Position numbers and translations under genes: made by a program. Positions 3,795 to 60,077 of a DNA stretch of 64,000 nucleotides are shown in pieces; positions within the stretch are counted from its first letter, which is position 1, and every line of letters starts with the position of its first letter. This stretch comes from Haliscomenobacter hydrossis DSM 1100 (GTDB lineage: Bacteria; Bacteroidota; Bacteroidia; Chitinophagales; Saprospiraceae), in assembly GCF_000212735.1 (NCBI RefSeq), contig NC_015512.1, positions 62,001 through 126,000 of the forward strand. Direction: 5' to 3'. The notes beneath the pieces were generated by a model that saw only the letters and a program-made list of their open reading frames with translations, ran no database searches and had not been told where the DNA came from.

Positions 3795-5007
3795 GTCACG
3801 ATTCGAAGCGGAAACAGGCTCTTGGTGCACCCAAATTGATTACAATCACCACTTAAATAGTCGCGATTCGAAGAGGAAACAGGCTCTTGGTGCACCATTC
3901 TCTTAGCTTCTTCAGCTCATATGTCGCGATTCGAAAAGGAAACAGGCTCTTGGTGCGCTTGTTTTAATGTGGGTGAATTGTTTATTTGTCGCGATTCGAA
4001 GAGGAAACAGGCTCTTGGTGCACCTGATTTTTTCATCCTTAGCGATGTGTGTCGCGATTCGAAGCGGAAACAGGCTCTTGGTGCACGTCAATTCATTAAA
4101 ATGAAAAACCTAATGTCGCGATTCGAAGCGGAAACAGGCTCTTGGTGCACCCGATTATCTTAAATATGTTATTAATGTGCCGCGATTCGAAGAGGAAACA
4201 GGCTCTTGGTGCACCATCGTTTTTGTTTTTTCTTTTCCGTTCGATGTCGCGATTCGAAAAGGAAACAGGCTCTTGGTGCACCATCAACTTACTCTTATAG
4301 CGGATTGTATGTCGCGATTCGAAGAGGAAACAGGCTCTTGGTGCACCATTTAATTCATAAACTAATTTATCAACGCCATGTCGCGATTCGAAGAGGAAAC
4401 AGGCTCTTGGTGCACCATCATTCAAAACTCACAATAATGAATACTGTCGCGATTCGAAGAGGAAACAGGCTCTTGGTGCACCTGTTTTTTTAATCCCTTT
4501 GTGGCTTTTGTCGCGATTCGAAGAGGAAACAGGCTCTTGGTGCACCATGAACTAATTTTCATTATAAACCTTTAGTCGCGATTCGAAGAGGAAACAGGCT
4601 CTTGGTGCACCTTGAATCAAAACTTAAAAATATGAAAAAGTCGCGATTCGAAGAGGAAACAGGCTCTTGGTGCACCTATTTCATCATTCAAACTATACTT
4701 CTAATTAGTCGCGATTCGAAGAGGAAACAGGCTCTTGGTGCACCAGTAAACAAGCATAAAAAAACAACTAATGTCGCGATTCGAAGAGGAAACAGGCTCT
4801 TGGTGCACCAGTTTAAACAATTATTATTTCACCCATTTGTCGCGATTCGAAGAGGAAACAGGCTCTTGGTGCACCACAATCAAACAACTAATCAATATGA
4901 AAGGTCGCGATTCGAAGAGGAAACAGGCTCTTGGTGCACCTTTTTTTTTTAACCAAAATCCACGCAAGATGTCGCGATTCGAAGAGGAAACAGGCTCTTG
5001 GTGCACC
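3795..5007 (-). CRISPR. CRISPR array 1: 19 repeats, 18 spacers
   Basis: Nineteen copies of a ~37-nt repeat start (as read on +) with GTCGCGATTCGA and end with CTCTTGGTGCACC. Spacers are 26-32 nt. The leftmost repeats are degenerate (TCACG, GAAGCGG, GTGCGCT) and a conserved AT-rich leader follows the right end, so the leader-proximal end is on the right and transcription is assigned to the minus strand. Most repeats carry GAAGAGG, where AAGAG can pair with CTCTT to form a 5-bp stem. Spacers 2 (3897-3922) and 3 (3960-3987) have near-identical copies in array 3, and spacer 3 also in array 2. cas2-cas1 follow the leader. Confidence 0.98.
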
Positions 5008-5100
5008 CTATATTTTTTCAACAAGTTGAAAATCAATAGCTAATTGAAAAATAAATTGCAGGACGATTGTTATAGTAATCATTCTACGTCCTCAATTCGA
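5008..5100 (-). promoter_or_regulatory. CRISPR leader of array 1
   Basis: The ~85 bp right of the last repeat are conserved beside all three arrays: CTAT, then a T-run, then TCAA(N4)TTGA inside TTTTCAA/TTGAAAA arms, and further on a shared ATTGTTAT block. Conservation next to otherwise different arrays and position at the well-kept repeat end identify it as the leader, expected to hold the array promoter and the Cas1-Cas2 docking signal. The 5101-5210 spacer up to cas2 shows nothing else recognisable. Confidence 0.8.
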
Positions 5101-5210: not shown

Positions 5211-5510
5211 TTAGAGGATAAGGTAGCGATCTTTGCCCAATAGAAGCCGGGTATCCATTTCCTGGCCAAGCATGAGCATGTTCAGCAAAGCTTGTTCATG
5301 AATTTTCAGGAAATGAATCTTGTCGTGACCAGCAGTTTTGTGTCCCATAAGCGCTTGTAACCTTTTGGCTAGGAGAGACACTCCCGTAGAAGAAATCATG
5401 CCAATGAACACCGATTTCTGGATGCGCACAAAGCCACTATTGACCAACTCTTTGGCAATTTTGCTGCGTTTTTTGGTGCTGCTGATGTCGTAACAAACGA
5501 GATAAGGCAT
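5211..5510 (-). CDS. cas2: Cas2, CRISPR adaptation protein
   Basis: This 99-aa ferredoxin-fold subunit of the Cas1-Cas2 integrase inserts new spacers at the leader end. The N-terminal strand MPYLVCYDIS carries the conserved Asp8. KRSKIAKELVNSGFVRIQKSVF is the usual first helix and second strand region of Cas2. It lies 5 bp after cas1 on the same strand and its 3' end faces the array 1 leader. A dead copy of its last dozen codons is found beside array 3, indicating that an array-leader-cas2 segment was once duplicated. Confidence 0.95.
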   Translation of the reverse strand: MPYLVCYDISSTKKRSKIAKELVNSGFVRIQKSVFIGMISSTGVSLLAKRLQALMGHKTAGHDKIHFLKIHEQALLNMLMLGQEMDTRLLLGKDRYLIL

Positions 5511-5515
5511 AAGCT

Positions 5516-6481
5516 TTAGTCTATTGGGAGGTGATGAATCAATTGTTGAAGTTCTTTGACTCGTTGAAACATCTCCGTTTGTTTGGAAGTCTTGGGCTGT
5601 GCCCCAGGCTCTTCCAAAATCTCGAATATGGCCTTAATCAATTTTTCTTTACCAGTAGGGCCCAGCCAATATCCTCCTTCGGGTTGTAGTGCAAAATCTT
5701 CGGGAGCTTTCCATTGAGCGCTTTTAGCCAAATGCAAACACGCTTGTTCAACCCAAGGACGAAAGGATTCGATCAAATCGTAGACCAAAACAGGGTTGCC
5801 ATCGCGTTCCTTGTGAAAAAAGCCAATGTAAGGATCCAGGCCTACCCGTTGAACCTGCCCCTGGAGCATGCCATAAAAAATGCCATAGCCATAATTGAGT
5901 CCTGCATTGAAATAATCCAGGGCGGGTTGGCGGCTGCGTTTTTCAAATTGGAAAGGTACTGGAAGCAGGTCGCTCAATAGTCCAAAAAACAATCTGCCGA
6001 AAACGGCTTCCTGCAATTCGGGTACAAAAGTCAATTCTGGCAACTGTAGTTCCAGTTGTGCCTGATTGTTTAAGGCAATGGCTTTTAGCTTTTCAAAATT
6101 CAGGAGTCCAGATTGATCTAAATGCATCGCTAGCAACTGGTATTGCCGGACTTGTTTTTCAACAATCCAGGTCGCAGCCAGGCGCTGTGCATCCGGGCTA
6201 TTGGCAAACAGCAGCTGCCTGCGGCGGGCTCTTGCCCCAATGGGGTTGACCCAGGGACTAAGGGTGCCCAAAGGGCTTCCTTCCCCAGAACAGATGACCA
6301 GTTCAATTTGAACTTCCAGCAATTTTACCAACAATTGAGCCGCAATGGAGGTGCTGGGGTGTATCCAGATGCGTTCAATTTGTTTGAAAGCAACGGGAGT
6401 ACGTTTTTCCCCATTCACCACCAAAATAGTACCTTCGTGATAATCGAGGTAAACGTTTTCAGATTGAATAAATATCTCCAT
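5516..6481 (-). CDS. cas1: Cas1, CRISPR integrase
   Basis: This 321-aa metal-dependent integrase joins prespacers to the leader-proximal repeat together with Cas2. The C-terminal helical domain shows the family metal ligands: Glu158 (QEAVFGRLFF), His223 (GFFHKE) and Asp235 (VYDLIESFRP). The N-terminal beta domain (about 1-80) is normal and the length is typical of stand-alone Cas1. It is not fused to a reverse transcriptase, although an RT gene lies just beyond the divergent cas6. The start codon is only 6 bp from the cas6 start on the other strand, so the two 5' regions must overlap. Confidence 0.96.
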   Translation of the reverse strand: MEIFIQSENVYLDYHEGTILVVNGEKRTPVAFKQIERIWIHPSTSIAAQLLVKLLEVQIELVICSGEGSPLGTLSPWVNPIGARARRRQLLFANSPDAQRLAATWIVEKQVRQYQLLAMHLDQSGLLNFEKLKAIALNNQAQLELQLPELTFVPELQEAVFGRLFFGLLSDLLPVPFQFEKRSRQPALDYFNAGLNYGYGIFYGMLQGQVQRVGLDPYIGFFHKERDGNPVLVYDLIESFRPWVEQACLHLAKSAQWKAPEDFALQPEGGYWLGPTGKEKLIKAIFEILEEPGAQPKTSKQTEMFQRVKELQQLIHHLPID

Positions 6482-6487
6482 ATTTGT

Positions 6488-7201
6488 ATGATGCTGAACT
6501 ATTATACCCTAAACACTTCCACCCCTGCCCTACCCGCTGAGTTGTATGCCTGGCGGAGTGCCATAGCCAATCTGTTTCGGGAACAGTCGGGGTGGCACAA
6601 CCACGATCCGGATACGGGGCGATCGATCCACCGTTACCCGGTGGTGCAGTACAAATTGCTGCAAAACAAGCTGGGCATTGTCGCTCTGGAGTCCGAAATA
6701 GAACCCATGCTGGAGTTGATCAAAGCCTTACCCCGTACCTTTTGGATCAACAATGCGCCAAAAAGATTGGACTTTCAGCGCCTGGAACGTCATGAATTCC
6801 AATTTCAAGTCTTGGCCAAACCCGCCGTGTACCAATGCGACAACTGGTTGCCGATGAATTCAGAACAATTTCAGGCATACAGCGCCTTGTGTCGCGCAGA
6901 AAACCTGAATCCGGGCAATCGCCAAATTGAATACCCCAGTTTATTGCTCTACTTCCAGCAGCTGTTGAGCGAACAAATCCGCTGGCACCTGCGGGGTTTT
7001 GGCTGTGAGGGAATTGCCGAACAACTGGAACTTACGTTGCTGAGTGAGCAATTGTTGCACCACCAAACCACTTATCATCGTGGCCTGCAAATCTCGATGA
7101 TGAAAGGCGTCAAAATTGTACTCAACATCAATTGGCCGCTGCACCTGGGGATGGGGACAGGAGCAGCGATAGGCTATGGAATGTTAAAAAAAACGCCATA
7201 A
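6488..7201 (+). CDS. cas6: Cas6-like crRNA-processing endoribonuclease
   Basis: This 237-aa RAMP protein is expected to cut pre-crRNA within the repeat. The C-terminal glycine-rich loop GMGTGAAIGYGML is the Cas6 hallmark, and the protein starts MMLNYYTLN, a beta strand typical of the ferredoxin-like N-domain. The open frame extends upstream to about 6143, but that part is antisense to cas1, so the ATG at 6488 (or 6491) is preferred. RT follows after 3 bp, so the two are probably co-transcribed. One Cas6 would serve all three arrays, whose repeats are nearly the same. The subfamily is not certain. Confidence 0.85.
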   Translation: MMLNYYTLNTSTPALPAELYAWRSAIANLFREQSGWHNHDPDTGRSIHRYPVVQYKLLQNKLGIVALESEIEPMLELIKALPRTFWINNAPKRLDFQRLERHEFQFQVLAKPAVYQCDNWLPMNSEQFQAYSALCRAENLNPGNRQIEYPSLLLYFQQLLSEQIRWHLRGFGCEGIAEQLELTLLSEQLLHHQTTYHRGLQISMMKGVKIVLNINWPLHLGMGTGAAIGYGMLKKTP

Positions 7202-7204
7202 GTC

Positions 7205-8197
7205 ATGCATGCACTATTTAAAAACGAACCAGATCAGTTGGCGCAATCACTCAATTGGCCTGATGACTACCAGGATGTCATCAAAAAACAAAATTATCAC
7301 CAGTTTTCCATGCCAAAAAAAGACGGTACCCTACGTGCCATTACCGCGCCAGGCAACAAACTGAAGTTTTTGCAAAAGACATTGAGCCATGCTTTCCAAT
7401 TGACGTACCTGAACAAAATTCCAGATTGTGTACACGGGTACGTACCCGGCGACATCCACCCGGAAGTAGGTACTCGCCATATTTTGAGCAATGCCCAGGT
7501 CCACTTTGGAGCCAAATATTTACTAAATCTGGACATCGACGATTTTTTTCCCAACCTCGATAGCCTGCGCATCCTCGATGCCTTGCGTTACTGGTATCCA
7601 GAAATGCCACAGGCAACACAGGAATTATTGGTGGGCATTTGTTGCTACAACAACCAGCTGCCGATGGGTGCACCAAGTTCGCCCGTACTGTCCAACATGT
7701 GCGTACACCAAATGGATTTGGCTTTATTGACACTTTGTGCACAGCATCAGGTTACTTACTCGAGGTATGTAGACGATATGAGCTTTTCAAGCTCCAGCGA
7801 TAATTTACTCGCCCTTGAACCTGCCTTAATAGAAGCCCTTCAAAGTTTTGGTTTTACAATCAACCAAGCCAAGCGGATGCATTTTGGCCCGGAGGGCCCT
7901 AAAATTGTCACGGGCCTGATCATGGATGAAACAGACATTACTGTAAATGATACTTTTTTGGACAACCTGAACGAGTGCATCAAAGAATACAGTCAACTCC
8001 GCTGGCTGAGCCGACAACTGGAAATGGACAAAAAATGGTTGCAGTCCAAGGTGCGGTTCGCGGCTCAGTCCATTGAAGGACAGTTGGCTTTTTTGTCTCA
8101 AATCCAGGGTGCAGATGATGCAGTGTACCAGAAATACCACCGAAAATTTGACAAGGCTCAAAGTATGCGCCCGCCTAACTACGACTTCTATTTCTAG
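7205..8197 (+). CDS. Stand-alone CRISPR-associated reverse transcriptase with retron-like motifs
   Basis: This is a 330-aa RT with no Cas1, maturase or endonuclease domain. Core motifs are LNLDIDDFF (108-115), MGAPSSP (154-160) and the catalytic YVDD (188-191). NAQVH (96-100) just before the first Asp motif matches the NAxxH signature of retron RTs, and VTGL (235-238) matches their region Y. The MGAPSSP block differs from the SQ-containing block of diversity-generating retroelement RTs. It lies 3 bp after cas6 and ahead of array 2. Most CRISPR RTs derive from group II introns and are often fused to Cas1, so a retron-like one is less usual. A role in acquiring spacers from RNA is inferred from context; a retron-like ncRNA partner is not evident. 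Confidence 0.93.
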   Translation: MHALFKNEPDQLAQSLNWPDDYQDVIKKQNYHQFSMPKKDGTLRAITAPGNKLKFLQKTLSHAFQLTYLNKIPDCVHGYVPGDIHPEVGTRHILSNAQVHFGAKYLLNLDIDDFFPNLDSLRILDALRYWYPEMPQATQELLVGICCYNNQLPMGAPSSPVLSNMCVHQMDLALLTLCAQHQVTYSRYVDDMSFSSSSDNLLALEPALIEALQSFGFTINQAKRMHFGPEGPKIVTGLIMDETDITVNDTFLDNLNECIKEYSQLRWLSRQLEMDKKWLQSKVRFAAQSIEGQLAFLSQIQGADDAVYQKYHRKFDKAQSMRPPNYDFYF

Positions 8198-8224
8198 CGT
8201 TGCACATAATCCTTATAATCCCTG

Positions 8225-8269
8225 AATTGGGCGACACTTCATTTGCTGGAGCATCGCCCAATTTTTTTT
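8225..8269 (+). terminator. Rho-independent terminator after cas6-RT
   Basis: A perfect 10-bp stem, AATTGGGCGA (8225-8234) and TCGCCCAATT (8254-8263), with a 19-nt loop, runs into eight T residues. It lies 28 bp after the RT stop and would end the cas6-RT transcript before array 2. Confidence 0.85.
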
Positions 8270-8334: not shown

Positions 8335-8895
8335 GTTGCGATTCGATAAGGAAACAGGCTCTTGGTGCACTTGTTTTACTGTGGGTGAATTGTTTATTTG
8401 TCGCGATTCGATAAGGAAACAGGCTCTTGGTGCACCTTTTTTTACCGTAATCCAATTCACTTTGGTCGCGATTCGATAAGGAAACAGGCTCTCGGTGCAC
8501 CCAATTGTTTTCATTCCGAATTTCTCACGTCGCGATTCGATAAGGAAACAGGCTCTTGGTGCACCAAATTTTTTCATTATGGGCACATTCGAGTCGCGAT
8601 TCGATAAGGAAACAGGCTCTTGGTGCACCCTATTATTAACCATATTTTTCAAACCAAAGTCGCGATTCGATAAGGAAACAGGCTCTTGGTGCACCATTCT
8701 TTGATTATATCCTTTTTAGCATATATGTCGCGATTCGATAAGGAAACAGGCTCTCGGTGCACTATTACTAACCCATATACCCATCAGTTAGTCGCGATTC
8801 GATAAGGAAACAGGCTCTCGGTGCACCTATTCACTCGTGGACAGAAAAGTTCACACAAGTCGCGATTCGATAAGGAAACAGGCTCTTGGTGCACC
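8335..8895 (-). CRISPR. CRISPR array 2: 9 repeats, 8 spacers
   Basis: Nine repeats belong to the same family as array 1, but all carry GATAAGG in place of GAAGAGG, and three read CTCTCGG instead of CTCTTGG. The first repeat (GTTGCG, ending in T) is degenerate, and the leader is on the right. The first spacer (8372-8399) is a one-base variant of array 1 spacer 3 and is also present in array 3. The array lies between the RT terminator and the 3' end of the cmr operon. Confidence 0.98.
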
Positions 8896-8985
8896 CTATG
8901 TTTTTCAATAAATTGAAAATCAAGGACTAACAAGCAAAACAATTCCAGGGCTATTGTTATCACTAGATTCTTACGATCACTTTCA
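8896..8985 (-). promoter_or_regulatory. CRISPR leader of array 2
   Basis: This leader is homologous to those of arrays 1 and 3: CTATG, a T-run, the TTTTTCAA/TTGAAAA inverted repeat, then the AATTCCAGG and ATTGTTATCAC blocks shared with array 3. It is closer to the array 3 leader than to that of array 1. The remaining 8986-9127 up to cmr6 holds no recognisable element and no cas2 remnant. Confidence 0.78.
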
Positions 8986-9127: not shown

Positions 9128-9922
9128 TCAAAATTTTTCCCAGGTCGCCTGATCAATTCGACCAAAATCGTAATTGGTTTTGGCCCCCAGGCCATACCGG
9201 GTCAACATTTGGGCGAAACAATCCAGTAACTGGTCAGCAGGGAAAAAGGAAGTAACGTGAGCACTCAGGTAAAAATAAAACTGAAAATGCCCGCCCGCCT
9301 GCATCTTTAAAAAAGGAAGCGGGGTGGGTTTTTTCAAAGGATGTTGGTGCGGGGTAATGATGTCGGTACCCAGCAGCACATCCACGGCCGGCGCAGCACC
9401 AATAAAATGGCACTGCTCGTAAGTTGACAACCAGCGTGGCGCTTTGGGGTTGCGGGTATCCTTGCCCTCAAACAGCAGATCGACGAACTGTTTTTGGGTG
9501 AAGGGATGCTGCTCATTTTCCAGCAAAGGTTGAAGTATCGTGGGCGTATTGCGTTCACAATGCGCCCGCAGGGCACCTTTGAGCGAGCTACCGGCGATGA
9601 AGGGCATACCCGTAGTAAAATCAAAGGTAAAACCCATCACCAATTCATTCAGTAGGCCCATGTTGTGTTTTATGCCCACCCCACTGAGGATACCACGGCC
9701 AGCAATCTGGCCTTCAATCATGGCGTTAGCACTTTTACGCAGACGCTCGTGCAACAAATCCAGGTATTCGCCCTGGTAGCGGAGCGGGTAGCCATTTTTA
9801 AACATTTTTTGGGCTTCTACAGACCCACCACTCATTTTAATCTTGCCCTCTATTTCCTCATGAATCAGCCCCTTGTAATATTCGCGATAGTAGGCCCAGC
9901 CCAGATTTTTTTGTTCCATCAC
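9128..9922 (-). CDS. cmr6: Cmr6, type III-B RAMP subunit
   Basis: This 264-aa RAMP protein is the Cas7-like cap at the 3' end of the crRNA in the Cmr complex. The segment FDFTTGMPFIAGSSLKGALR (100-119) is the conserved RAMP loop of Cmr6, and GLGAKTNYDFG near the C-terminus is the glycine-rich motif. It is the last gene of the operon and overlaps cmr5 by 4 bp (ATGA), which suggests translational coupling. The start may be either of the two leading Met codons. Confidence 0.93.
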   Translation of the reverse strand: MMEQKNLGWAYYREYYKGLIHEEIEGKIKMSGGSVEAQKMFKNGYPLRYQGEYLDLLHERLRKSANAMIEGQIAGRGILSGVGIKHNMGLLNELVMGFTFDFTTGMPFIAGSSLKGALRAHCERNTPTILQPLLENEQHPFTQKQFVDLLFEGKDTRNPKAPRWLSTYEQCHFIGAAPAVDVLLGTDIITPHQHPLKKPTPLPFLKMQAGGHFQFYFYLSAHVTSFFPADQLLDCFAQMLTRYGLGAKTNYDFGRIDQATWEKF

Positions 9923-10332
9923 TTTTGTTTTATGGGTTGCGACACTTGAATGGCCAGTTTAAAATAATCCACCGCTTGTTTGATCTCGTGTTGTAATTTG
10001 CCCATGTCTCCCGTTTTAATTTCCTCCACATAATTGCTCAAGAACCCTTTGTACTTCCCTGTAATATAGTAAAATAGTGCTTTGCAAAAAGTGGCACGCT
10101 TCTGTTCGACATCACTCCCGGTCGGATTTTTTTCAAAATACAGGCAAGTTTCCAGCAGTCCGATGTTAAAAACATTGTAGATGAAGTCGGAGCAGATGGG
10201 CACATAATCCTTGGTATCCACCGGGTATTTGGTTTTTTTGTCCGCCACATGCAGGATATGACAATTGATCAAGGCATCGAAAGCCTTTTGGATAAGTGGC
10301 AGTTCGAGTTTATTGATCATTTTGGTCAGCAT
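9919..10332 (-). CDS. cmr5: Cmr5, small (Cas11-type) subunit
   Basis: This all-helical 137-aa protein sits between cmr4 and cmr6, where the small subunit of type III-B complexes is encoded. It begins with the helix IQKAFDALINCHI and ends with a helix rich in Lys/Gln, and length and helicity fit Cmr5, which lines the target RNA channel. It overlaps cmr4 by 23 bp; the internal Met at 10320 would shorten the overlap. Identification relies on position and general character more than on a strong motif. Confidence 0.85.
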   Translation of the reverse strand: MLTKMINKLELPLIQKAFDALINCHILHVADKKTKYPVDTKDYVPICSDFIYNVFNIGLLETCLYFEKNPTGSDVEQKRATFCKALFYYITGKYKGFLSNYVEEIKTGDMGKLQHEIKQAVDYFKLAIQVSQPIKQK

Positions 10333-11344
10333 TAAGGGTTTTTAAAACAGACTCCAATTTTCGGAACTCACAACGTCCGTATCCTACCGACAAATTCGCA
10401 GCGATGTTGATCACCTTTTCGTCGATTTGTTCATCGAATTTCACTTTAAACTTATGGCTACTGTCCCCGCCAGCATAACCAACAAAAGAATAAAAGCGGG
10501 TTTCAGCGTGCAAAACCTGCTCAAACCAAACCTGTCTGCTGATGCGGTGCTCAAGCTGGTTGCGCGGCACAATCGGCAAGTGAAAATCATCCACCAACAC
10601 GTTGAAAGGCGCATCACTCCCCTGCTGGTCGCCTTGATCCATCACAATGCCAATAAAATTGTGGTTGCCGAAAAGAGACTTCAAGATGGGTAATTTTTGG
10701 CCATCCACCTGGGTCAATCGCGCTTTTATCTCAAAGCGTTCGAGGTAGATTTCGGAATCGGTAGTCGGCTCAGAACCGAGGTATAACAACCAATTGCTGG
10801 TGTTGTGCAAAAAACCCTCCTTTTCAAGAAAATCAATCTCTGATCGAATCGCGGAGCTGCGATCGGTGCCCAGGAAAAACCGGCTTTTTTCGCGCAAGTC
10901 CTGCAAAATCTGCGGACAAGTGACCAGGAAGAAAGGGCGATAATTGCTACGCACAGGAATGGCCAGTAATTCGGCGTCGTGCAAGGAAAAACGTCCAGCC
11001 TGGAAGACCTCTTTCACCTGGCCATTGAGTTCTGATTCCAGGATGTCAAGGGTATCCTGATCCAGTTTCAGGTCCTTGCGTTTTTGCAAGTTTCGCAGCA
11101 CCTGGATCAAGGCATTATCGAGCGAATGATTCCCGCCAAAAGCATAATTCACCAAATCCCTGAGCGCAGGATCCTGCATCAAATATTCCCGCAGCGCCCC
11201 TTTGAGAGAGCTATTGTGGATGGTAGGGAAACCCCGCCAATCCCGTTGCACCTTATGGTCGATGGCTTCAAATTCGCTACGTCCCGTTCCGGGATGTAAA
11301 GACATGAGGGCGCGAAGGAAAAAAAGGTCATATTGTGTTGGCAT
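10310..11344 (-). CDS. cmr4: Cmr4, Cas7-type backbone and target RNA nuclease
   Basis: This 344-aa RAMP repeats along the crRNA and cuts target RNA every 6 nt. The N-terminus shows LHPGTGRSEFEAIDHKVQRD; Asp29 corresponds in position to the catalytic Asp of known Cmr4 proteins. The RAMP loop GFPTIHNSSLKGALRE follows at about 38-53. Near the C-terminus LSVGYGRCEF is the glycine-rich segment. It lies 12 bp after cmr3. Target RNA cleavage should be intact, which would also time the shutdown of Cas10 signalling. Confidence 0.93.
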   Translation of the reverse strand: MPTQYDLFFLRALMSLHPGTGRSEFEAIDHKVQRDWRGFPTIHNSSLKGALREYLMQDPALRDLVNYAFGGNHSLDNALIQVLRNLQKRKDLKLDQDTLDILESELNGQVKEVFQAGRFSLHDAELLAIPVRSNYRPFFLVTCPQILQDLREKSRFFLGTDRSSAIRSEIDFLEKEGFLHNTSNWLLYLGSEPTTDSEIYLERFEIKARLTQVDGQKLPILKSLFGNHNFIGIVMDQGDQQGSDAPFNVLVDDFHLPIVPRNQLEHRISRQVWFEQVLHAETRFYSFVGYAGGDSSHKFKVKFDEQIDEKVINIAANLSVGYGRCEFRKLESVLKTLNADQNDQ

Positions 11345-11356: not shown

Positions 11357-12463
11357 TTAATCGATGGGCAAAAAATGATTGTAACCAATCTTGTGATAAT
11401 CCTCATACTGGGCGCAAAGCGCCCGGGGTTCAGTATCTTTATTCAGGTAAAGGATAGCGCCTCGTCCTAGCAGGTATTTGATTTCCGAAAAGCTGGGCAG
11501 CGCAAAATAGTTGGTGGCAGTGCGATTGGTGCGCGTTTGGTGGTGCCGAAACTGTACCACTTGTCCAATTACCGTTTGACAAAGGCTAAGGTAGTTGGCA
11601 TCCATGTACGCGTCCGACAACAATAAATACCGGCTACCTTTGCGCGCACCCAGATCCTGGAGCGGTTCAAAAGGTTCCGGTGGATTGTCTTGAGGAAAAA
11701 CCTCCATTTTAAAGCGGCTGCGCCGACCTCCCAGGGTGATAAAATCATTCTGCAAAGTTTGTCCATTGGCCAAAGCAAGGTAAAAACCAAAACCAAAGCC
11801 TGGTTTCAATCGAAATGAAAGCGATTTGAAGCGGCCCTGATCAAGGTTGGTTCCCTGGAGGCTTTTGTTGTTGTGGTCGCGGTGCTGAGGAATAAGCACC
11901 TCATCCAGGCTAAATGCAGGACCGCCTGTGGAGATCAGCAAAGGCACAAACTCGTTTTTGGCGCTATACGGAGACAAAGAATAGGCACTGCCCGGTTTCG
12001 CTTCATCGAGCAAGGAATAAGCCTTGTCGTTAACATTGGCCATGCGTCGAAACACTTCCTTCCTGCTTGGCCCATCTTCATCTGAATGGAGCATTTGGGT
12101 AAACTCGTGGCTGCGCAACAAATAAGGAATATTGCGTTCCCCTTGCAACAAAAAAGCCGGGGAAATGGACTCAATCGCCCCATAGTTTTGGCCTTCGGCT
12201 GGAAAAGAACCCGGACCAATCAGGGCCTCGGCCGCATGAGCTTGCGAAAGCGTTGCATCACCACGGCTGATCAGTCCCGCCTGCAGGAGGAGCTGGTAGC
12301 GAACCAGGCCCAGCAAAGAAGTTTGCTGAGGAAACCGAGCCGAATGCGTATAATACGTTGCCGGGTTGGCCAGTTCTGCATAAGTATTGGTGCCGAAGAA
12401 AAACGCATCACAAGGCGTCAAGCGCACCAAAAAATATTGAGTTTTCGGTATCGATGGGTTCAT
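11357..12463 (-). CDS. cmr3: Cmr3, Cas5-type subunit
   Basis: This 368-aa RAMP binds the 5' repeat-derived handle of the crRNA beside Cas10. It starts with VRLTPCDAFFFG, the usual Cmr3 opening, followed by the Cas5-like stretch FPQQTSLLGLVRYQLL. It lies 1 bp after cmr2 and 12 bp before cmr4, in standard operon order. No unusual feature was seen. Confidence 0.92.
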   Translation of the reverse strand: MNPSIPKTQYFLVRLTPCDAFFFGTNTYAELANPATYYTHSARFPQQTSLLGLVRYQLLLQAGLISRGDATLSQAHAAEALIGPGSFPAEGQNYGAIESISPAFLLQGERNIPYLLRSHEFTQMLHSDEDGPSRKEVFRRMANVNDKAYSLLDEAKPGSAYSLSPYSAKNEFVPLLISTGGPAFSLDEVLIPQHRDHNNKSLQGTNLDQGRFKSLSFRLKPGFGFGFYLALANGQTLQNDFITLGGRRSRFKMEVFPQDNPPEPFEPLQDLGARKGSRYLLLSDAYMDANYLSLCQTVIGQVVQFRHHQTRTNRTATNYFALPSFSEIKYLLGRGAILYLNKDTEPRALCAQYEDYHKIGYNHFLPID

Positions 12464-12464: not shown

Positions 12465-14159
12465 TCAGCGTTGATTAGAGCGGTTGTAAAAATGAATCAA
12501 ACGCACCAGGGCAAGCACGAGCGCCGAAGGTTGCAACTTAGGGTACACCTTTCGGCATTCTTCGCTATACAGTAATTCTAAATATTGGATGAAAGCCTGG
12601 CCTTGGCCCAGGAATTGAGCGTTTTGTTTGATCAGGTTTTCAAAAACGAGGCGCAGTGACCACTCACGTTGGTAGCGCATGTATTCAAAAAGCGGATCCA
12701 ACAATACCAGTCTGCGGGCCAGAGCGTTGCCAAAACTTGCCTCATCACCCTTATTGCCAATCACCAGGTACTCGCTTAAGGTGTGCAAAAAGCTCTCCCA
12801 GAGGGGTGGATGATTGCCCATGGGTAGCTCAATGCTCAACATCCGGCCACTGTGCGTGCCCAGGCGCAAAGCCAGGGTGTGTTTATCTGTGGCCTTTTTA
12901 GCAGCTTTTAGCGCATCCCGGGACATTCGAATGGATTCGTACAAGGGGGTTTTGTAGTGGGCAATGCTAACGCCAAAAGAAAGAGCAGGTTGCTCTTCCA
13001 ATTTTTTCAACTGCTGGGGGTAATTTTGGCGGAACTTCTCGTAATGCTCCTGAAATTTTTTGTCCAGCACGTCCAGCAACTTGAATAAGTGAGGGCTAGT
13101 TCCTGGGGTCTTTTTTCCGGCATCATCACTTGCAATTCGTCGCACAGGAGCCATAAAAAACAGGTCATCGCCGCCGATGTAAACCGGCACCCCGCCGTAG
13201 CTGGAAATCAGCTGCGCCGCATCCTGTGCAAAGTTGAACATGAATTTAGAAAAGACTTCAATCTGTCCAGGCTCTTCACCGATGCATTCCAGTACCTTCC
13301 CCAGGTAATCCCCGTCAGCGTGTACGATAGCGAGGTGTTTGTGGAGGTGCAGGAACTTGTCCCCAAAAGAAGCTTCCAGATCCGCGATCAATTCCGCTTC
13401 AGCCTGGTCGTCCCCTATGTTCGCGGCTTTAAAATGTTTGGCAATGAGGTCATCAAACACCGTTGGCTTACTGTCCCTCAGCTCCCTGGCGGCAATTTCG
13501 ATCAAGGAGTCGAAACGTTTGCCTTGGCCAAAACCATCCTGGATCAAAAAAGAAGTATCCTTTTTTGTCCGGGCATTGACCAGGTTAAAAAAATGAGCGA
13601 GGTGATTGGATGCCGGAGCGATGTCGGGCATTTTGGGGGCCAGTTCGATGGCATCAAGAAAAGGAGAAATGGTCAATATGACGTTTTGTCCCGATGGAAT
13701 GTCTACCTGTTGCGCATTGAGTTGCAAGAATTGGAACAATTGCTTCTGCACTTCGTCTTGTGAGGGTGCGGACTGCTCCTGGTGGTGTTTCAAGTGCAAA
13801 GCGATTTTTGCTGCCACACCCTTTATCACTTCTTTTGCTGCATTGCGAATGCTTTGAATATCTGGTGCCGCACCCGTGTGGTGCAAAATGATGCGATCCG
13901 GGTATAAACCAGCGCCAGTTTTGGCCATAGGTTCAGCTTCAACCGGAGGTCCAGCCTCAACCAGGGGCGCATCATCCGGAGCTGGGCGATCAAGGTAAGG
14001 CAGGATCACCTGACAATCCGATAAAGCCGACAATTTCAAAGCCAATTGGTGCATGAGGTAGGAAAAGAAGTAGGACGAAGCCCAGAGCTCGCGGGTAAAG
14101 CGCGCATTTTCGATGGTACGGTCAATAGGGCCAATAGTGATTCCGGTGTAAATTGGCAT
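12465..14159 (-). CDS. cmr2: Cmr2/Cas10 without HD nuclease domain, GGDD intact
   Basis: This 564-aa large subunit is much shorter than HD-containing Cmr2 (about 850-900 aa). It starts directly with the ferredoxin-like region (TRELWASSYFFSYL, 22-35) and has no HD motif. Palm 1 shows HADGDYLGK (280-288) with Asp282 and Asp284, and palm 2 shows YIGGDDLFF with GGDD at 329-332. Single-stranded DNA cleavage is therefore not expected, while nucleotide polymerase activity is. Known HD-less Cmr2 proteins make second messengers, in Bacteroides fragilis SAM-AMP that opens a CorA-like effector. The CorA-like gene at the head of this operon fits that scheme. Confidence 0.93.
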   Translation of the reverse strand: MPIYTGITIGPIDRTIENARFTRELWASSYFFSYLMHQLALKLSALSDCQVILPYLDRPAPDDAPLVEAGPPVEAEPMAKTGAGLYPDRIILHHTGAAPDIQSIRNAAKEVIKGVAAKIALHLKHHQEQSAPSQDEVQKQLFQFLQLNAQQVDIPSGQNVILTISPFLDAIELAPKMPDIAPASNHLAHFFNLVNARTKKDTSFLIQDGFGQGKRFDSLIEIAARELRDSKPTVFDDLIAKHFKAANIGDDQAEAELIADLEASFGDKFLHLHKHLAIVHADGDYLGKVLECIGEEPGQIEVFSKFMFNFAQDAAQLISSYGGVPVYIGGDDLFFMAPVRRIASDDAGKKTPGTSPHLFKLLDVLDKKFQEHYEKFRQNYPQQLKKLEEQPALSFGVSIAHYKTPLYESIRMSRDALKAAKKATDKHTLALRLGTHSGRMLSIELPMGNHPPLWESFLHTLSEYLVIGNKGDEASFGNALARRLVLLDPLFEYMRYQREWSLRLVFENLIKQNAQFLGQGQAFIQYLELLYSEECRKVYPKLQPSALVLALVRLIHFYNRSNQR

Positions 14160-14162: not shown

Positions 14163-15500
14163 TCAGTGATTTAGCGTCTGGGAAGAAGAGGTTATTTTGG
14201 TAAGTCCCAATGGTTTCACCTCATCGCCACCTTGATTGGACAATTCGATAGCAAAATCAAGGAAAGCAACCAGGTCAAACTCAGCTGGAGTTTTTAAGGC
14301 AAAATCCATTTCTTGTTTGACCCCATCTATTCCCTTGGGTGGTTCAGTCCCTTGAGGTGGTTTTTTAACAAACCTGGCACTAAAGTTGAACGGAACATCA
14401 AACAAAGCAAGTGGAATCAGCAAAGGGACAAAAAAGGCAAAATCCTGAAAAATTTTGATGCGTAGAGGCGAAGCGAATTGTTCAGGACCCTTTTTATCTT
14501 CAGCATCAATTTTAACTTTCATCCGTTCAAAGGGGCCGTGCATCAAAAACTCAAAATTTTCTGCTAAACCGAGCATGGCCCGGATGTACCAACTTTCATC
14601 ATAAGCATATTTGGGGTGGATGTCCTGAATTTGATTCCCCTCTGCTTTAAAATTGAGCTGGTCGTATTTTAAGAAGCGAAACACTTCAGGAAACTTTTCT
14701 TTGAGTCCCACTTTGATTGCCTTCTTTTCCCAACCCGGATAATTGGCCTGACCAGGATAGTCCGCGCTGTTGAAATAGCGCATCAAAAAGGATTTTTCAT
14801 AATGCTTTATATTTTGTTTATCGATGTAGTTTATCCCCGCCTTAAGTCGGCCATACACCCTGCGCAGATCATTCGGCTCCTGATTTTCTACAGCATTCGT
14901 GTATACCCCCCATTGGTTTCCATTTTGGATCGTAGTCGGATATACATTATCATTGATCTTAAAGGTATAGAATGGACCGCCGGGCTGGTAAAAATCATAA
15001 AGTACTTTCCCAATTTCTCCAACAGGAGGCAGTGACAAGGCCTCATCATCCAGGCAAGCGAGAGAAAACTGGCCATAGCCCTTACTTTGTCTACGTCCGA
15101 AATTTTCAACCAGAAAAAAAGTCGACAAGTGTTCCCGAGTAAACTGCAAGAGCCCCGGATGATCCGTCTGGAATTTACAGGAAAAAGCTTCCTCCTTATC
15201 CACAGCAAAGCGAGGGATCATTTTGGCCCCCACTACATTGGTATCCGGGCCATCAACAAATTCAGGGTTTGAGCATCCATACAGGGCAAAATCCAGCGCT
15301 TGGTGCTCTGCATTTCCCCGTCCCAAGAGCCAATCCTCCGGAACTGATTTTTGATGGATTCCTTGGTATTGAGCAAGTAAGAAGCGGTTCAACTTAGGTT
15401 TGAGTTCAGTTGAGCGCAAAAAATGCTCCGTTTCATTCTTGGCAATCAACACCGGAGTATGTTGGCGCAAGACCAGGGTAATTTCATCATTGTGGCGCAT
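14163..15500 (-). CDS. cmr1: Cmr1-like RAMP subunit
   Basis: This 445-aa protein is at the Cmr1 place in the cmr operon, 3 bp before cmr2 and overlapping the end of the DHH-CorA gene by 14 bp. The glycine-rich loop NFGRRQSKGYGQF (133-145) is a RAMP hallmark, and the N-terminal strand ITLVLRQHTPVLIA fits a Cas7-like fold. A lysine- and proline-rich linker occurs near residue 380. Cmr1 caps the 3' end of the crRNA with Cmr6. Sequence drift makes this call rest partly on operon order; another Cas7-type subunit is possible. Confidence 0.75.
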   Translation of the reverse strand: MRHNDEITLVLRQHTPVLIAKNETEHFLRSTELKPKLNRFLLAQYQGIHQKSVPEDWLLGRGNAEHQALDFALYGCSNPEFVDGPDTNVVGAKMIPRFAVDKEEAFSCKFQTDHPGLLQFTREHLSTFFLVENFGRRQSKGYGQFSLACLDDEALSLPPVGEIGKVLYDFYQPGGPFYTFKINDNVYPTTIQNGNQWGVYTNAVENQEPNDLRRVYGRLKAGINYIDKQNIKHYEKSFLMRYFNSADYPGQANYPGWEKKAIKVGLKEKFPEVFRFLKYDQLNFKAEGNQIQDIHPKYAYDESWYIRAMLGLAENFEFLMHGPFERMKVKIDAEDKKGPEQFASPLRIKIFQDFAFFVPLLIPLALFDVPFNFSARFVKKPPQGTEPPKGIDGVKQEMDFALKTPAEFDLVAFLDFAIELSNQGGDEVKPLGLTKITSSSQTLNH

Positions 15501-18180
15501 CAGTTTTGGATTTTCTGTTGTTTAAAGAATCAGTTTGGCGCTTGAGTAACGAATCGACTGGGAGTGTTTTAGGATCAGCAAGAGTCTTTTCCTTTTTGAG
15601 CCCCCCTTGTTGAAGTTGCTGTTCATTTTTCTCCCCAGCCCGTTCAAAGCAAAAGGGTAAAATAAAAATGAGGATAAAAAAGACCACTGCCAGAGCAAGA
15701 TGAATGGTTTCATTACGGTTGAACTTCTGCCCGGTTTCTTTGCGCATAAACGCATGTAAAGCCCGGTAAGCAAAGAACGACGCCCCCAGGATCAACAATA
15801 GAATGCCCCCCAGAACAAGGGGGCTAAAGGGCGATAACTGGTCATCGAACACATTGATGCCATAATAGGCCAGGGCAATTCCTGGCACAGCCAAAATGGT
15901 AGACAACAAAGCCAATAGACGATTGAGTCGCTCATTTTTTTCATTGCTTGCTTCACTCTCCTGGAGCACGAGGATATTGTGGTGGCTATGCAATTCACGC
16001 TCCAGGAACACCACCTCTTCAGCAATGCCCATTTGGTTTTGCAACAGCTTGTACAATTCAATCCCTTGTGCTTGCGCCGTTACCTCCCGAAAATATTGTC
16101 GATTGACAAATACAGAATAGTTTTTTAAAATGGCCTTGATTTTGGCGGGGTCATTGGTATACATTTTAATTTGATCCGAAAAAGTCAACAAGGAGGCTTT
16201 TTGGATCAGGCACAAATTGACCATTTTGAAATACAACGTTTGCAAGTGATGCAGTAAAAAATGGGTATTGTTCTTTTGGAGTGTACTCCATTGGGGGGTT
16301 AGTAACACAAAACTGTAGCGGGTGACCCCAAAGAGGGTACTATAGCTGCTCCAGCGCGCATTGGTGCTTTGCTCAATGTGTTGCCTGGCCAGGGGAGGAT
16401 ACGGGCAAGACTTCGCCTGGGGATTGTCGACAAACACATATTCATACCACCAATCATCGTTGAGGAAATTGGCATTCCCGGAAGCATCCCCTTGACCCAG
16501 ATGGCTGGAAAGCAGGTCGTGCCCATACCAGGACAATACAAACATGCGGTCGTCGAGGATAGGAATAGGAGGGGTAGTGATCGTTGCTGAATCCTTCCAA
16601 AGCAGCTTTTGGATAAAAGCTGGAATTCGAGGTTCTTCAACAGGAGAAAGGTAAGCATCAAAGGTTTCTTCGAATCCCAGCACCGTTAAGGATTTGGCCA
16701 GTTCAAGGTCTTGAACACCCAGGATAGATTTGGGATTTTTGGTCTCGGTATCAAAGTTCTCTCCTTTTAAAGCTAGTATCCATTCAGCATCCTTACCTGG
16801 GCTTTCCGTTTGAGCTACCGTAGTTGCTGACGTCATCAAAAAGGGAGGATAAATTCTGCGGCCAAATTGGTTGATGCGCTGGATGTCGATTGGTTTTGAC
16901 TGTTCCTTCTCCTTATTCTTCAAGTGAAAAGTGAGCACTCCCACTCCAGTAGGATGTAACTGCAGCGTGAGAGAGTCTACACTGAGGACATAGGTTTTAC
17001 CCCCAGGTTCTTGATGGCTGGGAGCAATCTGAATTTTGTATGTACGATCTTCTTTCTTTGCTAAATTATAACTTCGAAAATAAATGTCTTTGGAGTCAGG
17101 TCCAAGATCAAAAAGTGCGTCGCGGGTAAAGTCATAAAAATAGTTGAACTCGTTGTAATAAACTGGAGCAGAAAGTTCATACTTGTTATTTTCCCAATCC
17201 TCCTGCAAATGCTCCAATACCGATTCCCAGTGAGATTTTCCATTTAATACATTTTGAGCGGGCTCTACCGGGAACGATTGTAATTTGAAAGGGAAACTAA
17301 AAATGTGATAGCTGTAGATTTCATCCAGGCGATCGATGTTGCGGCTGAGGTGGTATTGGGGTTTAAGAAAGGTGGCAATTTTTCTGGCCAGGTCTTTCGG
17401 CTCATCCGATGATTTGGAAAGATTGAGGCCAAAATAGCCGTTAAAACCTCCACCAGAATAGGCTTCTTTGTTGTTGATTTCCGCTGCAAATTTATCCCTA
17501 AGCACCCCCACTCCTGGCCCATAATAAACGATTGCATCTTTATTGTACAAAATCAAATGGGTAGTTTTTTTTTCTTCAAGTGTCAGGTAGTCAACAATGG
17601 GTGCAAATGGAAGATTCAAGCGAACATGGATGGTGGTAATGTCAGCTTCCTGCTCGATAGGATTTTTTTGCAGGTCAGAATCCTTACTGGTTGACGTTGA
17701 AAGAATAGATTCAATCTCCTTTCGAGAAGGTTTTGCAATGCCCTGGGCCTCCCAATCTTTTTCCCGAATCTCTTCAATTTCAAAACGAGATAAGCCTTCC
17801 GCCAACAAACCTGGAATGTATGCTCTGTCATTGATGGCAACCAGGCGATGATAGTCGGAAAGTTCAATATTGAGCAGGGCAGCAACTTGTTCAATGGAAC
17901 TAAGGCGGGAATCATTTTCATCGTGGTGGTCAATAATCCGGTAGTCGGTAAGGTCTTTTAGAATTGTATCGTCGTCTATGGTTAGCTCTATAAAAACCAA
18001 GCAATGCGTTTTTTTCCTTTCCTTGATTGATGCCTTATAGCTAGAGAGTTTCGCGGTTTTCCAGCTCAATTTATTGCTGATGGTTTCTTCTTTGTGCTCA
18101 AGGAGTATTTTCTCAATTTCCTGCATCTCGAGGTCCATTCCTCCCAGGAAAAAACAATAGGGTTTTTCAGTATGGGTCAT
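15487..18180 (-). CDS. DHH/DHHA1 phosphodiesterase fused to CorA-like membrane effector
   Basis: This 897-aa protein begins the cmr operon. The N-terminal part (about 1-270) shows IIDHHDEND (82-90, DHH at 84-86), SSIEQVAALL, the later AINDRAYI and a DHHA1-like GGGFNGYFG loop, as in DHH phosphodiesterases of the NrN/nanoRNase type, though the glycine loop lacks the usual His. The middle (about 280-740) is a soluble domain I cannot name. The C-terminal part has a long helix (EERELHSHH-like region to NERLNRLL) and three membrane segments (about 755-775, 786-805, 826-845); YGIN after the first resembles the CorA GMN motif. In known SAM-AMP systems CorA is the effector and NrN the degrading enzyme, encoded separately in Bacteroides fragilis. 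Here both would be one chain. Function is inferred. Confidence 0.8.
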   Translation of the reverse strand: MTHTEKPYCFFLGGMDLEMQEIEKILLEHKEETISNKLSWKTAKLSSYKASIKERKKTHCLVFIELTIDDDTILKDLTDYRIIDHHDENDSRLSSIEQVAALLNIELSDYHRLVAINDRAYIPGLLAEGLSRFEIEEIREKDWEAQGIAKPSRKEIESILSTSTSKDSDLQKNPIEQEADITTIHVRLNLPFAPIVDYLTLEEKKTTHLILYNKDAIVYYGPGVGVLRDKFAAEINNKEAYSGGGFNGYFGLNLSKSSDEPKDLARKIATFLKPQYHLSRNIDRLDEIYSYHIFSFPFKLQSFPVEPAQNVLNGKSHWESVLEHLQEDWENNKYELSAPVYYNEFNYFYDFTRDALFDLGPDSKDIYFRSYNLAKKEDRTYKIQIAPSHQEPGGKTYVLSVDSLTLQLHPTGVGVLTFHLKNKEKEQSKPIDIQRINQFGRRIYPPFLMTSATTVAQTESPGKDAEWILALKGENFDTETKNPKSILGVQDLELAKSLTVLGFEETFDAYLSPVEEPRIPAFIQKLLWKDSATITTPPIPILDDRMFVLSWYGHDLLSSHLGQGDASGNANFLNDDWWYEYVFVDNPQAKSCPYPPLARQHIEQSTNARWSSYSTLFGVTRYSFVLLTPQWSTLQKNNTHFLLHHLQTLYFKMVNLCLIQKASLLTFSDQIKMYTNDPAKIKAILKNYSVFVNRQYFREVTAQAQGIELYKLLQNQMGIAEEVVFLERELHSHHNILVLQESEASNEKNERLNRLLALLSTILAVPGIALAYYGINVFDDQLSPFSPLVLGGILLLILGASFFAYRALHAFMRKETGQKFNRNETIHLALAVVFFILIFILPFCFERAGEKNEQQLQQGGLKKEKTLADPKTLPVDSLLKRQTDSLNNRKSKTDAPQ

Positions 18181-18404: not shown

Positions 18405-19484
18405 GTCGCGTTTCGAAAAGGAAACAGGCTCTTAGTGCACCTTCATTCTTCCATCATAGCGCCTTGTTTGTCGCGATTCGAAAAGGAAACAGGCTCTTGG
18501 TGCACCTATAATATTTTCAACCTTAAAAAACAATGTCGCGATTCGAAAAGGAAACAGGCTCTTGGTGCACCTTCTAAACTTGTATCACTATGGATCCATT
18601 AGAAGTCGCGATTCGAAGAGGAAACAGGCTCTTGGTGCACCTCTTCTTTGCACTCTTCAACTGCTTCAACGTCGCGATTCGAAAAGGAAACAGGCTCTTG
18701 GTGCACCTCATCTTTCGCTTTATTTTTGTCGATTGTCGCGATTCGATAAGGAAACAGGCTCTTGGTGCACCAAGTACATATTTAAAAACCTTTAAAAGTC
18801 GCGATTCGAAGAGGAAACAGGCTCTTGGTGCACCTTTTCTTAACCCCGGTTTGCAAGAGTGTCGCGATTCGAAGAGGAAACAGGCTCTTGGTGCACCATA
18901 TATTTCTTCTCTTTGTGTGTGTTTTGTCGCGATTCGATAAGGAAACAGGCTCTTGGTGCACCATTCTCTTAGCTTCTTCAGCTTATATGTCGCGATTCGA
19001 TAAGGAAACAGGCTCTTGGTGCACTTGTTTTAATGTGGGTGAATTGTTCATTTGTCGCGATTCGAAGAGGAAACAGGCTCTTGGTGCACCACCATGAAAA
19101 TAACTAAATATACCATGAAAGTCGCGATTCGAAGAGGAAACAGGCTCTTGGTGCACCTGTTATTTAATTTTTTTACAGTTTTTTTGTCGCGATTCGAAGA
19201 GGAAACAGGCTCTTGGTGCACCGACCTAATCGGCATTTCTTGTTTCAAAAAGTCGCGATTCGAAGAGGAAACAGGCTCTTGGTGCACCAAGGAGAGAGAA
19301 CAAGTCCACAGTCAAAAGTCGCGATTCGAAGAGGAAACAGGCTCTTGGTGCACCAACCTATTTTTATGAAATATTTGTTTGTCGCGATTCGAAGAGGAAA
19401 CAGGCTCTTGGTGCACCTGATATTCGTATATTATTTCATAACTTAATGTCGCGATTCGAAGAGGAAACAGGCTCTTGGTGCACC
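18405..19484 (-). CRISPR. CRISPR array 3: 17 repeats, 16 spacers
   Basis: Seventeen repeats of the same family have mixed variants: GAAAAGG at the left, GATAAGG in the middle, GAAGAGG towards the leader on the right. The first repeat is degenerate (GCGTTTCG, CTTAGTG). Spacers 18963-18988 and 19026-19053 are shared in the same order with array 1, and the second also with array 2. In arrays 1 and 2 these units are at or near the old end, but here eight older spacers precede them, so this array looks closest to the common ancestor. It lies beyond the 5' end of the cmr operon. Confidence 0.98.
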
Positions 19485-19575
19485 CTATATTTTTTCAATA
19501 AATTGAAAATCAATAGCTAATGGGCGAAATAATTCCAGGATCATTGTTATCACAAGCTCTTTACGAGGCAAAGTC
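19485..19575 (-). promoter_or_regulatory. CRISPR leader of array 3
   Basis: The first ~35 bases match the array 1 leader with only two changes, and the following AATTCCAGG and ATTGTTATCAC blocks match array 2. The TTTTTTCAA/TTGAAAA hairpin is kept. The leader is followed, about 110 bp further right, by a remnant of cas2. Confidence 0.78.
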
Positions 19576-49512: not shown

Positions 49513-50481
49513 TCACCCCTCCAATCCAAACTGCTGAGTTATATCTTTTGTCAACTTAGAAAGTGGCCTCTTTTGTAAGTCAGAATCATCTACGTAACTG
49601 GCAGTAATGAAACGGATCAAATCTGACTGGCTTCGAAAGAGCGTACCTTCAAATTGCTTGAATAGACTATCCAGGTACTCCGGGCTATACACCAGTGAGC
49701 GATTGACTTGCTCATGTACATAGTCCAGATGCTCTGCATACAATTCTCTCAATTTGAAATCCCGAATGTTATTTTGAGCTTTTTGAGCAATTGTAGACTG
49801 CTCATCCGAAAATAAAAAATCAATGGTTCCAGCTTGAATATTGCCGGCAAAAAAAGATAGATCGTGGATGTTCAAAAAAAAACGGACATCATTGTCAAAT
49901 CCATGTAGATGAGGGTGTAAGTGGGTGTCGGTTGAAAATTTAGCTTTGCCCTTCAAATTTGAATTACAAACATTGCAAGAAGGGATAAGATTGTACAGCG
50001 ATACTGCCAAGAATGGGTAGCTGGCTTTATCCCAAAAATGGTCAAACTGGGGCCTGATGATGTCCTTTTTTTCGTTGCTTACCGTATGTGTATATAAGCG
50101 ATTGCAGTAAGGACACGTATCTACCCCTAATTGCGCTGCCAACCAATAAGCATTCCAGCCCTTTTGAGATTGTTTTTGGATAAAAAGCTCGTAATCAAAT
50201 ATTTTTTTGAGTGAAGCTTTTAGCTTTTTAGTGTTTCTCTGAAAAGCAGGATAGGTTTCAGCTTCTTCAATGATTTGACTCAATTTGTCAGGATCACCAA
50301 TCAGGATTTCATCAAGTTTTGAGTACAAGAACTGTAAGAATCTCTGCTGTACCGCAGGGAGTTTTTGACTCAGCTGCTGGTCAAACTTGAGTAGAATTTT
50401 CCCTTTCCTGGTATCTTTTGCCATTGATAAAAAATCATTGGCTATGGCGCCGACTGGTCTTTTGGGCTGAATTTTAATCAT
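49513..50481 (-). CDS. ptuB: PtuB-like HNH endonuclease (Septu)
   Basis: In this 322-aa protein, the HNH region has DTCPYCNRL (Cys123, Cys126), RPQFDHFW with Asp147-His148, and IPSCNVCNSN (Cys169, Cys172), a zinc-type HNH. The N-terminal ~100 residues are helical. It overlaps the end of the ATPase gene by 8 bp, the ATPase-HNH pairing of Septu. In such systems the ATPase holds the nuclease inactive until infection. The family could also serve a retron-Septu hybrid, but no RT is adjacent here. Confidence 0.85.
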   Translation of the reverse strand: MIKIQPKRPVGAIANDFLSMAKDTRKGKILLKFDQQLSQKLPAVQQRFLQFLYSKLDEILIGDPDKLSQIIEEAETYPAFQRNTKKLKASLKKIFDYELFIQKQSQKGWNAYWLAAQLGVDTCPYCNRLYTHTVSNEKKDIIRPQFDHFWDKASYPFLAVSLYNLIPSCNVCNSNLKGKAKFSTDTHLHPHLHGFDNDVRFFLNIHDLSFFAGNIQAGTIDFLFSDEQSTIAQKAQNNIRDFKLRELYAEHLDYVHEQVNRSLVYSPEYLDSLFKQFEGTLFRSQSDLIRFITASYVDDSDLQKRPLSKLTKDITQQFGLEG

Positions 50482-55516: not shown

Positions 55517-55653
55517 GAGGTGTTCGGGTTGTCTACAAACGAAGATAGAGTAAAATATTGAAAATTGGTAATATTGAGAGATTGAGAAACACCTTGTGCC
55601 ATGGCATGTTTAACGGGGCAATAATCAATTACAAACCGCATCGATTAAGTAGT

Positions 55654-57513: not shown

Positions 57514-57531
57514 GCGGTGTTGGGTTGTTTT

Positions 57532-59993: not shown

Positions 59994-60012
59994 GAGGTGT
60001 GTTGGGTTGTTT

Positions 60013-60046: not shown

Positions 60047-60077
60047 GGGGAAGGGGAAATGGGAATGGGTAAAAAGG

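What the first reader, a model, noticed from the sequence alone, without database searches (positions are those of the whole stretch)
7205..8197. Retron-like, unfused reverse transcriptase inside a type III-B CRISPR locus
The RT has NAQVH before the first Asp motif, VTGL after YVDD, and no Cas1 or maturase part, features seen in retron RTs rather than in the group II intron-derived RTs that dominate CRISPR loci. It is 3 bp behind cas6, near cas1-cas2. Either it is an independent recruitment of a retron-type RT for spacer acquisition from RNA, or a retron-type defence activity coupled to Cas6.
Basis: partly seen in the sequence, partly recalled or inferred. Interest (0 to 1): 0.75.

Follow-up and report, generated by a model that had tools for sequence, protein, structure and literature searches.

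The report
Retron-derived reverse transcriptase serving CRISPR memory
A bacterium's CRISPR immune locus carries a reverse transcriptase that descends from retrons but has lost the retron's own RNA template and has evolved together with the proteins that write new CRISPR memories, so it probably helps to record RNA, a second route to this trick besides the well-known intron-derived one.

Summary
The gene is real: a 330-aa, stand-alone, catalytically intact RT, 3 bp behind cas6, in a complete type III-B locus (cas1-cas2, cmr genes, a CorA-DHH protein, three arrays). It is retron-type, not group II-type. The genome's size fits Haliscomenobacter hydrossis, whose CRISPR-linked retron-like RT was published in 2017 and dismissed as a possible recent insertion. 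The data here contradict that dismissal. At least 38 related RTs sit beside cas1 across Bacteroidota, form one supported clade, and their distances track Cas1 and Cas2. A second such locus lies on the same genome's chromosome. The sister clade is an ordinary retron (DnaB-like ATPase, structured ncRNA, RT). The CRISPR clade has lost that ncRNA: RTs often abut cas6 or cas2, upstream folding is at chance, and a covariance model that finds 16 unseen sister ncRNAs finds none in 41 CRISPR-clade loci. Best reading: a retron RT without its retron, domesticated once into the Cas1-Cas2 adaptation module, probably to make spacers from RNA. RNA-derived spacers are not shown; no protospacer was found. The rival idea (retron defence coupled to Cas6) is disfavoured. 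The retron origin is known; the conserved module, co-variation and ncRNA loss appear new, but the key 2019 paper could not be read.

The parts
7205..8197 (+). Stand-alone retron-type reverse transcriptase (330 aa), catalytic YVDD
6488..7201 (+). cas6 (Cas6b), stop codon 3 bp before the RT
5516..6481 (-). cas1, divergent from cas6-RT
   Evidence: TIGR00287, 171.6 bits, over cut-off
5211..5510 (-). cas2
   Evidence: TIGR01573, over cut-off
3795..5007 (-). CRISPR array 1; 37-nt repeats, 26-32-nt AT-rich spacers; leader at the high-coordinate end, so transcription on - strand is inferred
8335..8895 (-). CRISPR array 2, right behind the RT gene
18405..19484 (-). CRISPR array 3
5008..5090 (-). Leader-like sequence of array 1, repeated next to arrays 2 and 3
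   Evidence: families D6 and D7
8896..8976 (-). Leader-like sequence of array 2
   Evidence: family D7
19485..19566 (-). Leader-like sequence of array 3
   Evidence: families D6 and D7
9128..9922 (-). cmr6
   Evidence: TIGR01898, over cut-off
9919..10332 (-). probable cmr5, by position only
   Evidence: no family match
10310..11344 (-). cmr4
   Evidence: TIGR02580, over cut-off
11357..12463 (-). cmr3
   Evidence: TIGR01888 5e-7, below cut-off
12465..14159 (-). cas10/cmr2
   Evidence: TIGR02577, over cut-off
14163..15500 (-). cmr1, by position and similarity to the gene before cmr2 in related loci
   Evidence: no NCBIfam match
15487..18180 (-). DHH-CorA fusion, type III ancillary effector
   Evidence: CorA 9e-125; DHH_CorA 1e-46
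8224..8264 (+). Long hairpin followed by a T run, possible end of the cas6-RT transcript
   Evidence: fold; not called by the consensus scan

Best explanation
The RT is a component of the CRISPR adaptation module. A retron RT lineage of Bacteroidota joined Cas1-Cas2 of type III-B loci once, lost its msr/msd RNA and its retron partner protein, and has since evolved with Cas1-Cas2. The most likely mechanism is this: the active RT makes cDNA on captured RNA fragments, either before or after Cas1-Cas2 joins them to the leader end of the array, so that the memory includes transcripts; crRNAs matured by Cas6 then guide the Cmr complex to RNA. Shown: descent from retron RTs, conserved linkage, distance correlation, intact catalytic motifs, absence of the ancestral ncRNA as far as tested. 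Inferred: protein contact with Cas1-Cas2, RNA as spacer source, order of steps.
For: Linkage: 25 of 32 nearest RTs in the first searches lie beside cas1; arrays, cas2, cas6 and cmr genes recur, with order cmr-cas6-RT-cas1-cas2 in L053, L064 and L148. One clade: 29 RTs (27 cas1-linked), 100/98 support; wider set 40 RTs (38 linked), SH-aLRT 99. Members include Phaeodactylibacter xiamenensis KD52, Lutibacter maritimus DSM 24450 and Prolixibacteraceae JC049. A second such locus lies on the same chromosome. Distances correlate with Cas1 (r 0.88) and Cas2 (0.87), less with Cas6 (0.48, 11 loci). ncRNA loss: upstream folding mean z -0.4 in the clade against -3.2 in sister retrons, p 4e-6; model R1 has 0 hits in 41 clade loci, hits in 16 unseen sister loci; RT abuts or overlaps cas6 or cas2 in several loci. 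Catalytic Asp pair intact in 40 of 40. Group II-type RT-Cas1 fusions are known to acquire RNA spacers (PMC11014452 abstract).
Against: No protospacer was found in the own genome (array 1 only), phage records or six exact viral scans, so RNA origin is untested. The pyrimidine bias of crRNA-strand spacers fits antisense targeting, but controls show a weaker bias the same way and the window's own arrays show the opposite sign. The distance correlation partly reflects shared descent. RT and Cas1 are not fused, so contact is not shown. The clade keeps NAxxH and VTG, motifs tied to msr recognition in retrons (general knowledge), so a diverged or distant RNA partner is not excluded; L250 has a structured 197-nt gap.
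Confidence: 0.7

Rival explanations
1. Still a retron: the RT makes msDNA from an unrecognised RNA and works as a toxin-antitoxin type defence beside, or triggered by, the CRISPR locus or Cas6.
For: Retron-type fold and motifs NAxxH and VTG retained; a 3-bp gap to cas6 in the window.
Against: No room upstream in many loci, chance-level folding, no hit of the sister msr model, no Rfam match, upstream 250 nt not conserved where RT genes are 55-70% identical, no retron effector, neighbours are cas genes. The Asn after VTG, present in 29 of 29 sister RTs, is kept in only 4 of 40.
Confidence: 0.12
2. Recent incidental insertion of a retron RT next to cas genes, without a CRISPR function (the reading offered in PMC5541045).
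For: In 2017 its close relatives were reported not to be CRISPR-linked (PMC5541045).
Against: At least 38 linked members in one deep clade over several families, operon order and distance correlation with Cas1-Cas2. No ncRNA, hence no sign of a mobile retron unit.
Confidence: 0.03
3. The RT assists adaptation from DNA only, for example by filling in or tailing prespacer ends as a DNA polymerase, and not from RNA.
For: Spacers of the chromosomal locus have genome-average GC (45%), as DNA-derived spacers would; many RTs use DNA templates (general knowledge).
Against: Effectors are type III-B with RNA targeting, and the analogous RT-Cas1 acquires RNA spacers (PMC11014452). Nothing here separates the two directly.
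Confidence: 0.15

Closest known systems
Retron/retron-like RT linked to CRISPR-Cas in Haliscomenobacter hydrossis (GI 332661943; PMC5541045, PMC6013744; cited in PMC8934634)
   Different: The 2017 paper took it as a possible recent retrotransposition with unlinked close relatives; here it belongs to a conserved cas1-linked clade that has lost its ncRNA. Which of the two RTs bears that GI could not be settled.
Group II intron-derived CRISPR RTs and RT-Cas1 fusions (Marinomonas mediterranea type)
   Same: RT allied with Cas1-Cas2 in type III loci; likely the same biochemical role.
   Different: Different RT ancestry (far outgroup), not fused to Cas1, no maturase domain, independent origin.
Retrons, types XI/XII by nearest RT profile (PADLOC), and the DnaB-like ATPase retrons of the sister clade
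   Same: RT domain, NAxxH and VTG motifs, predicted fold closest to Eco2 and Ec86 RTs.
   Different: No msr/msd RNA found, no DnaB-like or other effector partner; LPMG fixed, Asn after VTG lost, a C-terminal WxxFxY tail in 24 of 40.
Abi-P2-related RTs linked to type I-C CRISPR (as cited in PMC8934634)
   Same: Another non-group II recruitment of an RT by CRISPR loci.
   Different: Other RT class and other CRISPR type; not tested here.

Membership tests
Retron | RT of the retron lineage with NAxxH and VTG motifs | tested here: met
   scores lie below NCBIfam's retron cut-offs
Retron | msr/msd RNA upstream of the RT | tested here: not met
   3-bp gap to cas6
Retron | Effector or partner gene/domain | tested here: not met
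   330-aa RT only; neighbours are cas genes
Retron | Production of branched msDNA | not testable with these tools
   needs nucleic acid from the organism
Group II intron-derived CRISPR RT / RT-Cas1 | RT within the group II lineage | tested here: not met
   outgroup split 100/100; Foldseek retrons 1e-17 against group II 1e-10
Group II intron-derived CRISPR RT / RT-Cas1 | Fusion to Cas1 or maturase domain | tested here: not met
CRISPR-associated RT (functional category) | Conserved linkage with cas1-cas2 and arrays | tested here: met
CRISPR-associated RT (functional category) | Spacer acquisition from RNA | not testable with these tools
   no protospacers found; assay needed
Retron-like CRISPR RT lineage of Toro et al. 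2019 | Retron-like RT encoded in a CRISPR-cas locus | tested here: met
   the paper itself was not readable, identity of the lineages not checked
Type III-B CRISPR-Cas | Cas10/Cmr2 with cmr RAMP genes, cas6, arrays | tested here: met

The most novel reading that the evidence does not exclude
The RT keeps the retron way of priming (NAxxH and VTG retained) and applies it to captured RNA or CRISPR RNA instead of msr, so that spacer precursors would be RNA-primed, perhaps branched, cDNA: a different chemistry of RNA spacer capture from that of group II-type RT-Cas1.
Probability: 0.12. Interest if true: 0.85.

Novelty: new variant of a known kind. Interest (0 to 1): 0.62.

Why it matters
It shows that CRISPR adaptation captured an RT from retrons in a stable way, spread over several families of one phylum and independently of group II introns, and pairs it with a living sister that still has its ncRNA. 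That pair makes testable how a retron RT loses its dedicated template and becomes a general RNA recorder, and offers small unfused RTs as candidates for RNA-recording tools.

Tried and rejected
Peptide-pattern search for close relatives of the window RT alone: none; an alignment query was needed. Plasmid DNA search: no match. Self-targeting or phage protospacers: none convincing. Start-codon enrichment in window spacers: generic ATG not enriched; the word ATGAA is (14 of 39 against 6.7 shuffled, p 0.0025; 5.6 in GC-matched genome fragments, p 0.0007), but the word was chosen after looking, so it is only a lead. Purine/pyrimidine strand bias as a sign of mRNA targeting: present in the clade (46.2% purine), but controls were mixed, almost all type III controls also carried RT hits, and the window is opposite, so not used as proof. 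Reading 'recent insertion': rejected by clade-wide linkage.

Full report
What is there. It starts 3 bp after the cas6 stop. Around it lie divergent cas1-cas2, a Cmr operon, a DHH-CorA fusion and three arrays with one repeat and shared leader-like sequences. The host genome has 8,771,651 bases in 4 contigs and the window lies on contig 3, 143,757 bases long; from memory this fits Haliscomenobacter hydrossis DSM 1100.

Retron-type, not group II. The best profiles are retron RTs (PADLOC RT-Protease_XI 1e-66, RT-TIR_XII 5e-60), against 5e-13 for the group II maturase profile. PDB sequence matches are Ec86, Kva2 and Ec67 retron RTs. The AlphaFold model (pLDDT 93.8) matches Eco2 and Ec86 RTs at 1e-17 and group II RTs at 1e-10. 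In an 84-row tree the group II RTs and RT-Cas1 fusions are split off with 100/100 support.

Known before. Toro et al. 2017 named a CRISPR-linked RT of H. hydrossis as retron/retron-like, said close relatives were not CRISPR-linked, and suggested a recent retrotransposition (PMC5541045). It then served as outgroup (PMC6013744) and is cited in PMC8934634. Toro et al. 2019 (RNA Biol 16:1486) could not be read here; from memory its abstract lists a minor retron-like lineage among CRISPR RTs. This genome holds two such RTs, so which one bears the published GI is open.

It is a conserved module. The chromosome of the same genome carries a second type III-B locus with an RT directly before cas1 (L046). 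Of 32 loci from the first searches, 25 have cas1 beside the RT. The cas1-linked RTs, with two on short or broken contigs, form one clade (29 rows, 100/98). A named-genome scan raised it to 40 rows, 38 linked, SH-aLRT 99, in Haliscomenobacteraceae and Saprospiraceae, Flavobacteriaceae and Prolixibacteraceae. Gene orders such as cmr1-6, cas6, RT, cas1, cas2 on one strand recur (L053, L064, L148), and arrays lie nearby in most loci. The sister-clade loci read at 10-20 kb have no cas genes by the same test. RT distances correlate with Cas1 (r 0.88, 25 loci) and Cas2 (0.87, 23), less with Cas6 (0.48, 11). Shared descent inflates such values.

The retron RNA is gone. Sister-clade RTs follow an ATPase gene, in the three cases profiled of the DnaB_C type (Pfam 3e-70 or better), mostly at 155-265 nt. 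That gap holds an RNA with end repeats GAGCCGTTG / CAACGGCTC, a conserved TTATGA, short hairpins and a long hairpin, as in retrons. Folding z-scores of the 200 nt upstream of the RT average -3.2 in the sister clade and -0.4 in the CRISPR clade (p 4e-6). A covariance model of the 5' part (R1) finds 19 loci among 36 others, 16 of them neither used in building nor near-copies of a row used, but none in 41 CRISPR-clade loci including the window and none in the own genome. Because R1 came from the sister clade, a strongly diverged RNA could escape it. But in the window, L016, L021, L026, L008, L009 and L027 the RT abuts or overlaps cas6 or cas2, which leaves no upstream place outside coding sequence. 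In the RT itself, the Asn a few residues after VTG (VTGxxxN) is kept in 29 of 29 sister RTs but 4 of 40 of the clade, LPMG replaces the LPQG of most retrons (39 of 40), and 24 of 40 have a C-terminal WxxFxY tail absent from the others.

Function. The correlation with Cas1-Cas2, operon structure and intact active site point to spacer acquisition; RNA as source is inferred from type III-B effectors and from group II-type RT-Cas1 (PMC11014452). No protospacer was found. crRNA-strand spacers of the other 19 loci are pyrimidine-rich (46.2% purine, 533 spacers), as antisense guides would be, but controls lean the same way more weakly and the window is opposite. The window's spacers are unusual: 26% GC and 28 nt, against 45% and 34 nt at the chromosomal locus.

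Verdict. Observation confirmed; interpretation partly supported. It works, most likely, like the RT of RT-Cas1 systems, but by descent it is a retron RT, and it is not filed as a retron, because the defining RNA was tested for and not found.

Noticed in passing
window 3795-5007, 8335-8895, 18405-19484: Spacers are short (mean 28 nt) and very AT-rich (26% GC in a 45% GC window), unlike nearly all other loci of the clade; ATGAA/TTCAT occurs in 14 of 39 (about 6 expected), as if starts of AT-rich genes were sampled. Arrays 1 and 3, and 1 and 2, share near-identical old spacers.
   Followed up: partly
L033, L034, L136-L146, L256-L287 (sister clade): A retron group made of a DnaB_C-like ATPase, a structured ncRNA and an RT, common in Bacteroidota; PADLOC has no model that names the ATPase as a retron partner.
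   Followed up: partly
L263 436-3543: Sister-clade retron (DnaB-like ATPase, ncRNA, RT) directly followed by a Cas6b gene on a 3.7-kb contig: possible intermediate between retron and CRISPR-linked RT, or chance neighbourhood.
   Followed up: partly
L046 (own chromosome, C1:7783000-7802900): Second type III-B locus of the same genome with RT-cas1, a 40-repeat array and another of 26 repeats beyond cas2.
   Followed up: yes
window 15487-18180: DHH phosphoesterase fused to CorA, the kind of ancillary effector linked with SAM-AMP signalling in type III-B systems (last point from memory).
   Followed up: no
L150 (RT of L020): Another clade member with short spacers (26-34 nt), one array at 31% GC in a 53% GC locus, like the window.
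   Followed up: no
L250 upstream of the RT: The only CRISPR-clade locus with a strongly structured 197-nt gap (z -4.1) before the RT; no resemblance to the sister ncRNA was found by R1.
   Followed up: partly
window 49513-52321: AAA-type ATPase gene overlapping a gene with a possible HNH motif, resembling a two-gene Septu-like defence pair; not tested.
   Followed up: no
window 54422-62045: Several related proteins that look like caspase-like plus formylglycine-type domain fusions in a row; not tested.
   Followed up: no
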